From: Candidatus Mycolicibacterium alkanivorans
Lineage (GTDB): Bacteria > Actinomycetota > Actinomycetes > Mycobacteriales > Mycobacteriaceae
Length of the DNA: 64,000 nt
Assembly: GCF_022760805.1 (NCBI RefSeq)
Contig: NZ_JAIVFL010000001.1
Span: forward strand, 2,294,001-2,358,000
Reading direction: 5' to 3'
In this document: positions 29,805 to 34,716 of the stretch, piece by piece
How positions within the stretch are numbered: position 1 is the stretch's first letter
Layout: each line of letters starts with the position of its first letter
Notes under the pieces: model-generated
Database searches by the model: none
Told to the model about the DNA's origin: nothing
What the model saw: the letters and a program-made list of their open reading frames with translations, nothing else
Made by a program: the position numbers and the translations under genes

Positions 29805-30410
29805 TCAAACCGCGTCTCGCCTGCTCGCCACGGGCGCCTCGGTGAGCAGCAGCCGCGCGGACCGCTCGAGCCGGGGGGCGATTTCGGTGTAGGAGGCGTA
29901 GCCCATCCCGGCCCGCACCAGGGCTCCGGCGTAGAGCTGCTCGAGCGACTCGACGATCTCTGAATCTGCTTGGGTACCAAGGGCTAACGACAACCGCTCG
30001 TGGATCTCCCGACCGATGCGCAAGCGTAGGTGCTCGACGTCGGGATCCTTGCCGAGCAGCGCGGTGGTGACCGCCCCGGCCAGCTGCGGCTCGTCGGCGA
30101 CGAGAAGCGCGATGTGGCGCAGCACGGCGACCACCCGCTCCACCGGATCCGGTGAGTCGGACGGCGGGGCAGGAGTCGAGGCCAGCCGGCGCCAGAACAC
30201 CTCGGCGACCAGATGCTCCTTGGACGAGAAGTACGTATAGGCAGTCGCCGCACCGACACCGGCCTCGGCGGCCACCATCCGGACCGTCAGGCCGGCGAAA
30301 CCCTCCCGGCTGAGCACGTCCACCGCGGCGCGGCCCAGCCGCTCCACGGTGGCTGCCTGTCTGGCTGTCAACCGGCGGCGTGTGGATTCCCGAGCTACCG
30401 GTTCAGACAC
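29805..30410 (-). CDS. TetR family transcriptional regulator
   Basis: 201 residues from GTG 30410 (MSEPVARESTRRRLTARQ). N-terminal helix-turn-helix: RAAVDVLSREGFAGLTVRMVA followed by GVGAATAYTYFSSKEHLVAEVFW, the TetR recognition-helix pattern. The ligand-binding half is helical. The start codon sits in an operator-like palindrome (GACA-N2-TGTC) whose 13-bp core recurs at 34428-34440 before the 84-residue gene. This suggests that the regulator controls itself and the cluster to its right. The frame is open upstream, but that segment is a shadow. Confidence 0.88.
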   Translation of the reverse strand: MSEPVARESTRRRLTARQAATVERLGRAAVDVLSREGFAGLTVRMVAAEAGVGAATAYTYFSSKEHLVAEVFWRRLASTPAPPSDSPDPVERVVAVLRHIALLVADEPQLAGAVTTALLGKDPDVEHLRLRIGREIHERLSLALGTQADSEIVESLEQLYAGALVRAGMGYASYTEIAPRLERSARLLLTEAPVASRRDAV

Positions 30411-30416
30411 ATGTCC
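30404..30416. promoter_or_regulatory. Operator-like site 1 at the tetR start
   Basis: CAGACACATGTCC on + (GGACATGTGTCTG on -) holds the inverted repeat GACA-CA-TGTC. The same 13-mer occurs at 34428-34440. It includes the tetR GTG, so binding would give autorepression. Confidence 0.6.
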
Positions 30417-30480
30417 GGACGCTACTACAACGCACGTTGGGCGACAAGATGACCGCTGGCCATCGCACACGCCGACAGGA

Positions 30481-30492
30481 TAGGTTCGAACC
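30481..30492 (+). promoter_or_regulatory. -10 box TAGGTT and palindrome at the methyltransferase start
   Basis: TAGGTT (30481-30486) is followed by 6 nt and the ATG at 30493 (leaderless). A 10-bp palindrome GGTTCGAACC (30483-30492) covers the predicted start site and might bind a regulator, although it does not match the 13-bp word of the nearby operator-like sites. Confidence 0.45.
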
Positions 30493-31281
30493 ATGGGCCG
30501 CACCGACTCCGCGCTCGGCGCGCAAACTTCCAGACTGTTCGAATTGGCCGACCAGGTGGTGGGTTTCATGCCCGCTGACGAAGGGCGGGCACTGTTCGAC
30601 GCGGCGGTCCGCTACCTCGATGGCGGGGTGGCCGTCGAGATCGGTACGTACTGCGGCAAGTCGACGGTTCTGCTCGGTGCGGCGGGCGCGGCCACCGACA
30701 GCGTTCTGTACACGATCGATCATCACCACGGTTCCGAGGAGCATCAGCCGGGCTGGGAGTGGCACGACGCGACGATGGTCGACCCGGTCAGCGGGCGGTT
30801 CGACACGCTGCCCACCTTCCGCCGGACACTTCATGCGGCCGGTCTCGACGACACGATCGTCGCGGTGGTGGGCAAGTCGACGGTGGTGGCCCGCGGCTGG
30901 CGGACGCCCCTGCAATTGCTGTTCATCGACGGGGGTCACAGTGAGACCGCCGCCCAGCAGGACTTCGCCGGCTGGGCCAAGTGGGTGTCGGTGGGTGGCG
31001 TGCTGATCATCCACGACGTCTTTCCCGACCCGCGCGACGGCGGCCGACCGCCCTACAACATCTATTGCCGCGCATTGGAATCCGGCCACTTCACCGAGGT
31101 AGGGTGCACCGGGTCGCTGCGGGTGCTGGAGCGTACCTCCGGCGGGCAGGAGCGAAGCGACTCGGGGATCGGCTCCGGCGGGCAGGAGCGAAGCGACTCG
31201 GGGATCGGCTCCGGCGGGCAGGAGCGAAGCGACTCGGGGATCGGCTCCGGCGCGGCGGGCGACAAGCCCGTCAGCTCCTGA
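30493..31281 (+). CDS. Class I SAM-dependent methyltransferase with C-terminal 12-residue repeats
   Basis: 262 residues. The Rossmann core has VAVEIGTYCGKSTVLLGAA (SAM loop, about 46-64), TIDHHHGSEEHQPGWEWHD and LLFIDGGHSETAAQQDF, like the CmcI/O-methyltransferase (Methyltransf_24) group, where these acidic and His residues bind metal and SAM. After about residue 215, three copies of GGQERSDSGIGS form a low-complexity tail encoded by perfect 36-bp DNA repeats. The 3' end overlaps the convergent terpenoid-fold gene by 11 bp. It presumably methylates a product of the neighbouring cluster. Confidence 0.8.
   Translation: MGRTDSALGAQTSRLFELADQVVGFMPADEGRALFDAAVRYLDGGVAVEIGTYCGKSTVLLGAAGAATDSVLYTIDHHHGSEEHQPGWEWHDATMVDPVSGRFDTLPTFRRTLHAAGLDDTIVAVVGKSTVVARGWRTPLQLLFIDGGHSETAAQQDFAGWAKWVSVGGVLIIHDVFPDPRDGGRPPYNIYCRALESGHFTEVGCTGSLRVLERTSGGQERSDSGIGSGGQERSDSGIGSGGQERSDSGIGSGAAGDKPVSS
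31138..31245 (+). repeat. Three perfect 36-bp tandem repeats
   Basis: Units at 31138-31173, 31174-31209 and 31210-31245, each TCCGGCGGGCAGGAGCGAAG followed by CGACTCGGGGATCGGC, without mismatches. They add twelve residues each in frame to the methyltransferase tail. Perfect identity points to recent slippage or expansion. Confidence 0.95.
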
Positions 31282-33062: not shown

Positions 33063-34327
33063 GGTTCGTCGACCGCCTCGATGGTGTTGCGGACCCGACC
33101 GGTGCGGGCGATCGCCTGCTCGTAGACCCGCACCGTCTGCGCAGCCACCGACTCCCAGCTGAAGACGTCGAGCGCGCGCCGTCGACCCGCGGTGCCCAGC
33201 CAGTGCCTGCGCTCGGGGGACGACAGCTGCCGGTCGAGCGCGGCGGTCAGCTCGCCGACGTCGCCGGGGGTCACCAGATCAGCGCATTCCCCGTCGGGGC
33301 CCAGCACCTCGGGCAGCGCACCGGCGCGGCTGGCCACGATCGGCGTCCCGCTGGCCATGGCCTCCACGGCAGGCAGCGAGAAGCCCTCGTACAGCGAGGG
33401 GATGCAGGCGACCTCGGCGGAGGCGAACAGTGTTGCCAGCTCGGCGTCCGACAGACCGCTGGAGGTGTGCACGATGTCGGAGATGCCGAGTTCGGCGATC
33501 AGTTTCTCGGTCGGTCCGTTGGGTTCGAGCTTGGCGACGAGCTGCAGTTCCACCTCGTGCTCGGCACGCAGTTTCGCAACCGCGTGAAGTAGGTGGCCGA
33601 TGCCCTTGAGTGGACGGTCGGCGCTCGATATCGCGATGATCCGGGCCGGAACCCGTGGCTGTTCGAGCGGTTTGAACAGCTCGGTGTCCACACCGAGCGG
33701 CACGACGTGTAACTGGTCGGGGCTGACGCCGAAGTCGTCGGCGATGTCGGTGGCCGACGACGACGACACCGTCAGCAGGTCGGGAATGCTGCGGGCGACC
33801 TTCTTCTGCATCTGCGCGAAGCCATACCACCTGTGCACCAACGGCTTTCGCCACCATTTGGCGGCGGCCAGATCGAGCACCCGGTCCCGGGTGATGGGGT
33901 GGTGCACGGTGGCCACTACGGGCAGGCCGTCGGCGGCGATCCGCAGCAGCCCGGTACCGAGGCACTGGTTGTCGTGGACCACGTCGAACTCGTCGCGGCG
34001 GGCGGCGAGCAGTCGTGCGGCGCGCAGGCTGAAGGTGCGCGGCTCGGGGAAGCCCGAGGTCCACATGGTGGCAAGTTCGAGCATGTCGATACGGTCGCGG
34101 ATCTCACTGGGGCGGGGCACGCGGAACGGATCGGGCTCGCGGTAGAGGTCCAGGCTGGGAACCTCGGTCAACCGGACCCGGGGATCGAGCACCTCGGGGT
34201 AGGGCTGACCGGAGAAGACCTCGACGTCGTGACCCAGTTCGACCAGCCCACGGCTGAGGTGGCGGACGTAAACCCCCTGCCCGCCGCAGTGGGTCTTGCT
34301 GCGATACGACAGCAACGCAATTCGCAT
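33056..34327 (-). CDS. Glycosyltransferase family 4
   Basis: 423 residues from ATG 34327, chosen over GTG 34333 because AGGAG stands 8 nt before the ATG. GT-B fold: N-terminal acceptor domain opening MRIALLSYRSKTHCGGQGVY (GGxG acceptor/donor loop), mid linker VVPLGVDTELFKP, and the donor-binding signature EGFSLPAVEAMASGTPIVAS near 320 with its Glu-x7-Glu. It probably transfers a sugar from a nucleotide donor. It leads the minus-strand operon with the methyltransferase and the toroid protein. The divergent promoter region on its left end side (34328-34461) holds the operator-like repeat. Confidence 0.88.
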   Translation of the reverse strand: MRIALLSYRSKTHCGGQGVYVRHLSRGLVELGHDVEVFSGQPYPEVLDPRVRLTEVPSLDLYREPDPFRVPRPSEIRDRIDMLELATMWTSGFPEPRTFSLRAARLLAARRDEFDVVHDNQCLGTGLLRIAADGLPVVATVHHPITRDRVLDLAAAKWWRKPLVHRWYGFAQMQKKVARSIPDLLTVSSSSATDIADDFGVSPDQLHVVPLGVDTELFKPLEQPRVPARIIAISSADRPLKGIGHLLHAVAKLRAEHEVELQLVAKLEPNGPTEKLIAELGISDIVHTSSGLSDAELATLFASAEVACIPSLYEGFSLPAVEAMASGTPIVASRAGALPEVLGPDGECADLVTPGDVGELTAALDRQLSSPERRHWLGTAGRRRALDVFSWESVAAQTVRVYEQAIARTGRVRNTIEAVDEPC

Positions 34328-34423
34328 GCTCACGCTCCTGCCATGGCCACGACGGATGAGGGCGGGTTACCCGCCGGGCTCCCGCAAGTCATCGTGGAAG
34401 CAACCGGACACCGGCAGCGAGCT

Positions 34424-34449
34424 GTCTGGACATGTGTCTGGACTATAAT
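34424..34449 (+). promoter_or_regulatory. Operator-like site 2 and -10 box TATAAT
   Basis: GGACATGTGTCTG (34428-34440) is identical to site 1 at the tetR start. GTCTGGAC is also directly repeated at 34424-34431 and 34436-34443. TATAAT (34444-34449) follows immediately and would start transcription near 34456, just before ATG 34462. A repressor on this site would cover the -35/-10 spacer, and it also lies 100 bp upstream of the divergent glycosyltransferase gene. Confidence 0.65.
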
Positions 34450-34461
34450 TCGATTAGCTAC

Positions 34462-34716
34462 ATGTTGCAACGTAGGCCCTCACCGCACGGTTTGCTCAGC
34501 GACTGGTTCAGTGAGATGCACTACCACTTCGACCACATTCTCGGCTCGGCGGGGTTTCCCGACGCCGTCAGCCCGGCCGCCGCCGCAGTGCGCGCACCCG
34601 ACCACCAGGGCGGCCCGGATGCCGTGTACGTGCCGGGCCACAGCGCCGTGGTCGACGCCACGGTCAGGCCCACCACGCACGACACCGGGCTGCCGCCGGC
34701 TGAGGAGAAGAAGTAG
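34462..34716 (+). CDS. Small protein of unknown function (84 aa) in the TetR-linked cluster
   Basis: ATG 34462 encodes MLQRRPSPHGLLSDWFSEMH followed by a His-rich stretch (YHFDHILG) and a Pro/Ala/Asp-rich, probably flexible C-terminus ending PPAEEKK. An upstream in-frame ATG (34432) lies before the -10 box and cannot be on the transcript. No family is recognised. Its perfect TATAAT box and the operator shared with tetR suggest strong, regulated expression. It could be a metal-binding accessory, a substrate peptide or a carrier for the cluster enzymes; none is shown. Confidence 0.55.
   Translation: MLQRRPSPHGLLSDWFSEMHYHFDHILGSAGFPDAVSPAAAAVRAPDHQGGPDAVYVPGHSAVVDATVRPTTHDTGLPPAEEKK

What the first reader, a model, noticed from the sequence alone, without database searches (positions are those of the whole stretch)
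29805..34716. TetR-linked glycosyltransferase/methyltransferase/terpenoid-fold cluster of unknown product
GT4, SAM methyltransferase and alpha-toroid protein genes overlap one another (operon), a second methyltransferase converges on them, and TetR and an 84-aa protein flank the set. A 13-bp word GGACATGTGTCTG occurs at the tetR start and at the small-gene promoter and contains GACA-N2-TGTC, tying the ends into one regulon. The enzyme set could glycosylate and methylate a small molecule, lipid or peptide that has not been described.
Basis: partly seen in the sequence, partly recalled or inferred. Interest (0 to 1): 0.75.

Follow-up and report, generated by a model that had tools for sequence, protein, structure and literature searches.

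The report
Methylmannose polysaccharide cluster with TetR operators
The genes are the known mycobacterial set for making a methylated mannose polysaccharide that is thought to carry lipids, and beside them lies an apparently undescribed, strongly conserved repressor-and-operator switch that a sterol/lipid-oxidation gene cluster shares, which offers a testable clue to what the polysaccharide is for.

Summary
The genes and the 13-mer are real, but the product is not unknown. Three of the four enzymes match solved proteins of the published 3-O-methylmannose polysaccharide (MMP) cluster: ManT, MmpH, MeT1. The fourth is the putative 3-O-methyltransferase pMeT3. The "terpenoid-fold" protein is the MMP endomannosidase. 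The "84-aa gene" looks like a deletion scar.

The new part is the control. The palindrome YRGACAYRTGTCYR is exact at only two places in the 4.05-Mb genome: on the tetR start codon and beside manT's -10-like box. GACA-N2-TGTC lies upstream of manT in 77 of 79 related loci and on the tetR start in 35 of 35 that hold tetR near meT1. Elsewhere in 80 loci it occurs twice in 1.18 Mb.

Where this tetR is missing, the manT operator persists. In six such genomes another copy sits on a paralogous tetR (Rv0767c type) of the cyp51/cyp123/aldA locus. In several other genera both gene sets adjoin, with this TetR. The TetR model resembles KstR, a sterol-CoA sensor.

Best reading: a KstR-like autorepressor controls manT-pmeT3-mmpH, historically within a lipid/sterol-oxidation regulon. 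Binding and ligand are inferred, not shown.

The parts
29805..30410 (-). tetR: KstR-like TetR, likely repressor of the MMP cluster; the GTG start lies inside the operator
   Evidence: Pfam TetR_N and TetR_C_20; GTG at operator position +5 in 35 of 35 loci; AlphaFold model nearest KstR
30404..30417 (-). operator 1, CGGACATGTGTCTG (strand of tetR), over the tetR start codon
   Evidence: 35 of 35 loci that hold tetR near meT1
30419..30424 (-). -10-like hexamer TAGCGT of tetR, implying a leaderless transcript that starts in the operator
   Evidence: TANNNT at this offset in 35 of 35 loci; consensus inference
30493..31281 (+). meT1: MMP 1-O-methyltransferase
   Evidence: PDB 6g7d, 336 bits, residues 11-217
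31137..31252 (+). 36-bp tandem repeat, 3.2 copies, lengthening the C-terminus of MeT1
31271..32347 (-). mmpH: MMP alpha-(1->4)-endomannosidase (the 'alpha-toroid')
   Evidence: PDB 7qsj, 623 bits; catalytic Asp and Glu residues kept as D48, D51, E263 (PMC9883506)
32331..33062 (-). pmeT3: putative MMP 3-O-methyltransferase
   Evidence: Methyltransf_11 and cluster position; activity not shown in the paper either
33056..34333 (-). [quoted passage not shown] start GTG 34333 or ATG 34327
   Evidence: PDB 7qsg, 726 bits; K243 and E316 correspond to Lys240 and Glu313 (PMC9883506)
34427..34440 (-). operator 2, CAGACACATGTCCA (strand of manT), upstream of manT
   Evidence: GACA-N2-TGTC within 300 bp upstream of manT in 77 of 79 loci
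34442..34447 (-). -10-like hexamer TATAGT of the manT operon, same offset to the operator as in tetR
   Evidence: TANNNT at this offset in 68 of 77 loci
34432..34716 (+). deletion scar read as an 84/94-aa ORF: remnants of a divergent MBL-fold hydrolase gene (about 34519-34665) and the start of a 72-bp piece conserved further on in relatives (34660-34731)

Best explanation
The locus makes 3-O-methylmannose polysaccharide (MMP). ManT adds alpha-(1->4) mannoses, pMeT3 presumably 3-O-methylates them, MmpH cuts mature MMP into primers, and MeT1 caps the reducing end; this scheme is published for ManT, MmpH and MeT1. A KstR-like TetR repressor, encoded next door, binds GACA-N2-TGTC palindromes at two promoters. 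One lies over its own start codon (leaderless transcript, autorepression). The other lies just downstream of the -10-like box of manT-pmeT3-mmpH, where a bound dimer would cover the start site. A lipid ligand, most likely an acyl-CoA or sterol-side-chain CoA, would release it and raise MMP synthesis. The same operator heads the paralogous repressor (Rv0767c type) of the cyp51/cyp123/aldA locus. In several other genera the two gene sets form one cluster with the orthologue of this TetR. MMP synthesis is therefore probably co-regulated, historically and perhaps still, with lipid/sterol oxidation. Shown here: enzyme identities, operator conservation, promoter geometry, synteny. Inferred: binding, repression, any effect on meT1 (its start is about 75 bp from the operator), and the ligand.
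Against: No binding, expression or ligand data were available here. In 0 of the 20 loci fetched outside the genus does an operator lie just upstream of manT; it lies at tetR, at aldA or elsewhere. Seven of these 20 carry the MMP genes with no TetR and no operator within the fetched stretch (L218-221, L223-225); three of them (L219, L220, L221) come from genomes that do have a TetR match elsewhere, so linkage is not general. The TetR also occurs without mmpH: 43 of the 103 genomes outside the genus whose TetR rows were printed have no mmpH match, so its first task may not be MMP. A KstR-like fold does not prove a KstR-like ligand, and an unnamed TetR fits as well.
Confidence: 0.85

Rival explanations
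1. The cluster makes an undescribed glycosylated, methylated small molecule, lipid or peptide.
For: The gene set would suit this if no relatives were known.
Against: Three proteins match solved enzymes of MMP synthesis over most of their length, active-site residues included for two of them, in the published gene order.
Confidence: 0.02
2. The palindromes are the tetR autoregulation site plus a chance or vestigial copy at manT; the TetR does not control MMP.
For: In the 20 loci fetched outside the genus the operator is not upstream of manT. In many loci of the genus the adjacent tetR is gone.
Against: The operator is the most conserved 14-column block in the aligned manT upstream of 36 loci without adjacent tetR. 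It keeps a fixed offset to a -10-like box in 68 of 77 and occurs in 77 of 79 loci.
Confidence: 0.08
3. In genomes without the MMP-tetR the manT operator is bound by the Rv0767c-type repressor of the cyp51/cyp123/aldA locus (regulator takeover).
For: All 6 genomes of the genus with mmpH and no MMP-tetR match at E 1e-40 carry the same palindrome on the start codon of an Rv0767c-type tetR. The ATAYTYF helix is shared. Published Rv0767c sites are enriched in GAC/GTC (PMC10312376, passages). This complements the best explanation; the window's own genome lacks the Rv0767c type.
Against: Not tested by binding. Many genomes carry both regulators, so cross-talk there is unresolved. The TetR search scored only 10 candidates per genome.
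Confidence: 0.6

Closest known systems
MMP biosynthetic gene cluster (meT1-mmpH-pmeT3-manT), Maranha et al. 2023, PMC9883506
   Same: All four genes, their order and orientation; solved structures of three orthologues; active-site residues of MmpH and ManT
   Different: The paper's main text has no whole word TetR, repressor or TetR family, and no word beginning with regulator, operon, promoter or transcription. Here a TetR and two operators belong to the locus, and MeT1 has a repeat-lengthened C-terminus
Rv0767c-type TetR of the cyp51/cyp123/aldA locus ('motif X', PMC6593523)
   Same: Same palindrome over the GTG start codon; same ATAYTYF recognition helix
   Different: 45-49% identical where measured; separate group in the tree; sits beside P450, aldehyde dehydrogenase and SDR genes
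KstR (Rv3574), TetR repressor of cholesterol catabolism
   Different: 22-24% identity; NCBIfam KstR model 50.5 bits against a cut-off of 280; different operator (recalled)

Membership tests
MMP biosynthetic cluster | ManT, pMeT3, MmpH and convergent MeT1 in conserved order | tested here: met
   PMC9883506
MMP biosynthetic cluster | MmpH residues Asp47, Asp50, Glu262 needed for activity | tested here: met
   window D48, D51, E263 aligned to 7qsj; numbering offset of 1 read from the D-x-W-D pattern
MMP biosynthetic cluster | ManT Lys240 and Glu313 needed for activity | tested here: met
   window K243 and E316 aligned to 7qsg; numbering matched by sequence motif
MMP biosynthetic cluster | The organism produces MMP | not testable with these tools
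   needs polysaccharide extraction
TetR autorepressor regulon | TetR DNA-binding domain and palindromic operator at its own promoter | tested here: met
TetR autorepressor regulon | The protein binds the operator and represses | not testable with these tools
   needs binding and expression assays
KstR | NCBIfam KstR equivalog cut-off of 280 bits | tested here: not met
   50.5 bits
Rv0767c-type TetR | Groups with the TetRs beside aldA and cyp123 of the genus | tested here: not met
   the window TetR lies outside that group (SH-aLRT 100 on the branch) and sits beside meT1
Squalene/terpenoid cyclase fold enzymes | Match to a cyclase or prenyltransferase family above its cut-off | tested here: not met
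   SQHop_cyclase_N 16 bits against 26.2; best match MmpH

The most novel reading that the evidence does not exclude
MMP belongs to an ancient lipid/sterol-oxidation regulon. One KstR-like repressor family and one operator control both MMP synthesis and the cyp51-cyp123-aldA-SDR-CMD genes (Rv0764c-Rv0771 type). MMP serves as a carrier for the CoA thioesters of that pathway. In species that lost the MMP-tetR, the manT operator was taken over by the Rv0767c-type repressor.
Probability: 0.3. Interest if true: 0.75.

Novelty: new member of a known kind. Interest (0 to 1): 0.48.

Why it matters
The enzymes of MMP synthesis are known, but when and why the polymer is made is open: it is proposed to sequester fatty acyl-CoAs, and its loss slows growth in the cold (PMC9883506). 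A conserved switch, shared with a sterol/lipid-oxidation locus and carried by a repressor that folds like a sterol-CoA sensor, gives a direct way to ask which signal turns MMP on.

Tried and rejected
Terpenoid/squalene-cyclase reading of 31271-32347: rejected.

84-aa ORF as a peptide or precursor gene: rejected as most likely a scar. In some searches I gave this ORF from 34463, one base out of frame; its empty results there do not count, and it was redone in the right frame.

TetR as KstR, MftR or another named equivalog: the 15 NCBIfam hits are all far below cut-off.

Other exact operator sites in the own genome: none; of the five 1-mismatch sites, none has an ORF matching the window's TetR or enzymes beside it (loci L146-L150).

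Rv0767c-type TetR in the own genome: none. Hits apart from the MMP-TetR itself are 34-36% over 61-63 aa.

Seven exact operator-like sites in relatives (L152, L171, L190, L192, L198, L200, L201) stay unassigned and were kept in the count of 83. All hold TAGAC or ATAT, but so does one assigned site (L164), so this does not separate them cleanly. L192 carries a different TetR ORF starting at its site.

The third TetR type (L172, L189, L194, L203) was not followed up. Which of G155_10530 and G155_29025 in PMC6593523 might be the MMP-TetR could not be checked, because supplements were not open to me (one search found no other paper).

Structure-library rows other than KstR and FadR were not used as evidence, apart from 3bjb, told above.
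Full report
What is there. The window is from a 4.05-Mb genome; the best named relatives of the alpha-toroid protein are Mycobacterium and Mycolicibacterium. Between 29805 and 34716 lie tetR (-), a Methyltransf_24 gene (+), and three overlapping genes on the minus strand: alpha-toroid, Methyltransf_11 and GT4. The neighbours are a DUF4333 protein on one side and a nicotinamidase-like (Isochorismatase) gene on the other.

Identity of the enzymes. By sequence, the alpha-toroid matches 7qsj, methylmannose polysaccharide hydrolase MmpH (623 bits, residues 2-357). 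The GT4 matches 7qsg (726 bits), deposited as a D-inositol 3-phosphate glycosyltransferase; I take it to be the ManT structure of the same paper. The convergent methyltransferase matches 6g7d (336 bits), which I recall as MeT1. PMC9883506 (abstract, several passages, and sections 4, 15 and 16 read) describes the 4-gene cluster meT1-mmpH-pmeT3-manT, MMP loss in an mmpH mutant of M. smegmatis, and slower growth of that mutant at 15 deg C. MmpH residues Asp47, Asp50 and Glu262 correspond to D48, D51 and E263 here, and ManT Lys240 and Glu313 to K243 and E316. The product is therefore known; pMeT3 activity is unproven in that paper too.

The small ORF. Homologous stretches of the 94-aa reading lie apart in relatives: residues 1-26 at the operator, 30-53 and 60-76 in a divergent gene encoding an MBL-fold protein (Lactamase_B, 2e-18 for L035:5115-5823), and 77-94 in a 72-bp piece further on, 88-97% identical at DNA level in the 7 relatives printed. 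Seventeen close relatives (L034-L051 except L036) have 3.2-4.9 kb between manT and the nicotinamidase gene; here it is about 0.5 kb. The ORF is best read as the scar of several deletions. I read the further piece as part of an aminotransferase gene from its translation; no family search was run on it.

The operator. The 13-mer is unique to the two sites in the genome, and the degenerate 14-mer YRGACAYRTGTCYR likewise. Across 80 loci from the genome collection plus the window, GACA-N2-TGTC lies within 300 bp upstream of manT in 77 of 79 loci with readable upstream DNA; L052 and L061 have one mismatch, and L053 and L068 lack the region. It lies on the tetR start in 35 of 35 loci that hold tetR near meT1. 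In the 80 loci the core occurs 111 times in 27.4 kb of these two promoter regions and twice in 1.18 Mb elsewhere; YRGACANNTGTCYR 110 times against none. In both promoters a TANNNT hexamer starts 9 nt before the core (35 of 35 at tetR, 68 of 77 at manT), and the tetR GTG codon lies at +5 in 35 of 35. A dimer on the palindrome would cover both start sites. This is inference from consensus; no transcript ends were available.

The regulon across the genus. Of 29 genomes of the genus, 24 have mmpH; all 24 have an operator about 2.0-2.1 kb from mmpH on the manT side, and the 18 of them with an MMP-tetR match have one at its start (assigned from coordinates). Of 83 exact sites, 24 are at manT, 18 at MMP-tetR, 1 at a 51%-identical TetR in a genome without mmpH (L164), 28 at the aldA/P450 locus beside a second TetR, 5 beside a third TetR type (36-43% identical to the second), and 7 are unassigned. 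The reversed control pattern gave 5 exact sites in the 28 genomes, against 81. One genome, G246, has neither mmpH nor a site.

The second TetR. In six genomes that have mmpH but no MMP-tetR match at E 1e-40 (G069, G124, G136, G239, G267, G297; one search scored only 10 candidates each) the same palindrome lies on the GTG start of a TetR 46-48% identical to the window's where measured (5 of 6), beside an aldehyde dehydrogenase and a P450. In L235 the order is CMD, SDR, AldA, operator, TetR, P450, SDR, then a CYP51 that matches 1e9x (Rv0764c) with 823 bits. This is the order of Rv0764c-Rv0771 printed in a table of PMC10470581 (passages), so I call it the Rv0767c type. PMC6593523 (section 8 and passages) reports a palindromic motif X at phytosterol-induced operons, similar to the Rv0767c site. 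PMC10312376 (passages) reports that Rv0767c sites are enriched in GAC and GTC. PMC4482099 (passages) lists a computed Rv0767c motif. The motif letters themselves were not readable in these texts.

Outside the genus. In L208, L209, L210, L211, L215 and L217 the MMP genes lie on one stretch with CMD, SDR769, AldA, TetR and the CYP123-like P450; in L208, L209, L215, L216 and L217 CMD and meT1 lie within about 0.1 kb of each other (families). The TetR is 61-70% identical to the window's in the six loci and groups with it, apart from the Rv0767c type (SH-aLRT only, long branches flagged). Of 54 genomes outside the genus with mmpH and TetR rows printed on the same contig, 51 have them within 20 kb; 3 are 27-71 kb apart, and 4 more genomes have them on different contigs. 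Both lists were capped at the strongest matches. Against the reading: in 0 of the 20 fetched loci is there an operator just upstream of manT; 7 of the 20 have MMP genes with neither TetR nor operator in the stretch, among them L219, L220 and L221 from genomes with a TetR match elsewhere; 43 of the 103 genomes with printed TetR rows have no mmpH match; and the 20 were not drawn at random.

What is not in print, as far as searched. Searches for methylmannose with TetR (36 papers hold both word beginnings, 20 listed, only PMC9883506 looked into), Rv0767c with methylmannose (none), five MSMEG tags around the cluster (6479, 6480, 6482, 6484, 6485) and MmpH/ManT/MeT1 (one paper) showed no paper that describes this TetR or operator for MMP in the held open-access library; subscription papers are not covered. 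Ripoll-Rozada et al. 2019 and Minch et al. 2015 were not seen (recalled, or cited by others).

Noticed in passing
31137-31252: A 36-bp unit in 3.2 perfect tandem copies lies in the 3' end of meT1 and lengthens the protein to 262 aa; no relative measured exceeds 240 aa. A 30-bp part of the unit occurs at 13 places (up to 3 mismatches) in the genome, three of them here, so it is a dispersed repeat.
   Followed up: partly
34432-34816: The 3.2-4.9 kb between manT and the nicotinamidase gene of 17 close relatives is collapsed to about 0.5 kb here, with short remnants, in a genome of 4.05 Mb where the other 28 same-genus genomes searched have 4.4-7.5 Mb.
   Followed up: partly
28893-29627: Lipoprotein-like protein with DUF4333; below cut-off it resembles the NCBIfam model named 'anti-apoptotic protein' (166 against 250 bits).
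   Followed up: no
36102-38226: Open reading frames that look like parts of an ABC transporter (permease-like pieces in different frames and a solute-binding protein) next to a transposase-like ORF at 38253-39650; a frameshift is possible. Read by eye, no family search.
   Followed up: no
L189, L194, L203, L172: A third TetR type (36-43% identical to the Rv0767c type) lies beside exact copies of the palindrome in four genomes.
   Followed up: no
L209:2106-2969, L217:13539-14396: A luciferase-like monooxygenase gene (Pfam Bac_luciferase for the L217 copy) lies near manT or mmpH in 12 of 19 loci scanned outside Mycobacterium.
   Followed up: partly
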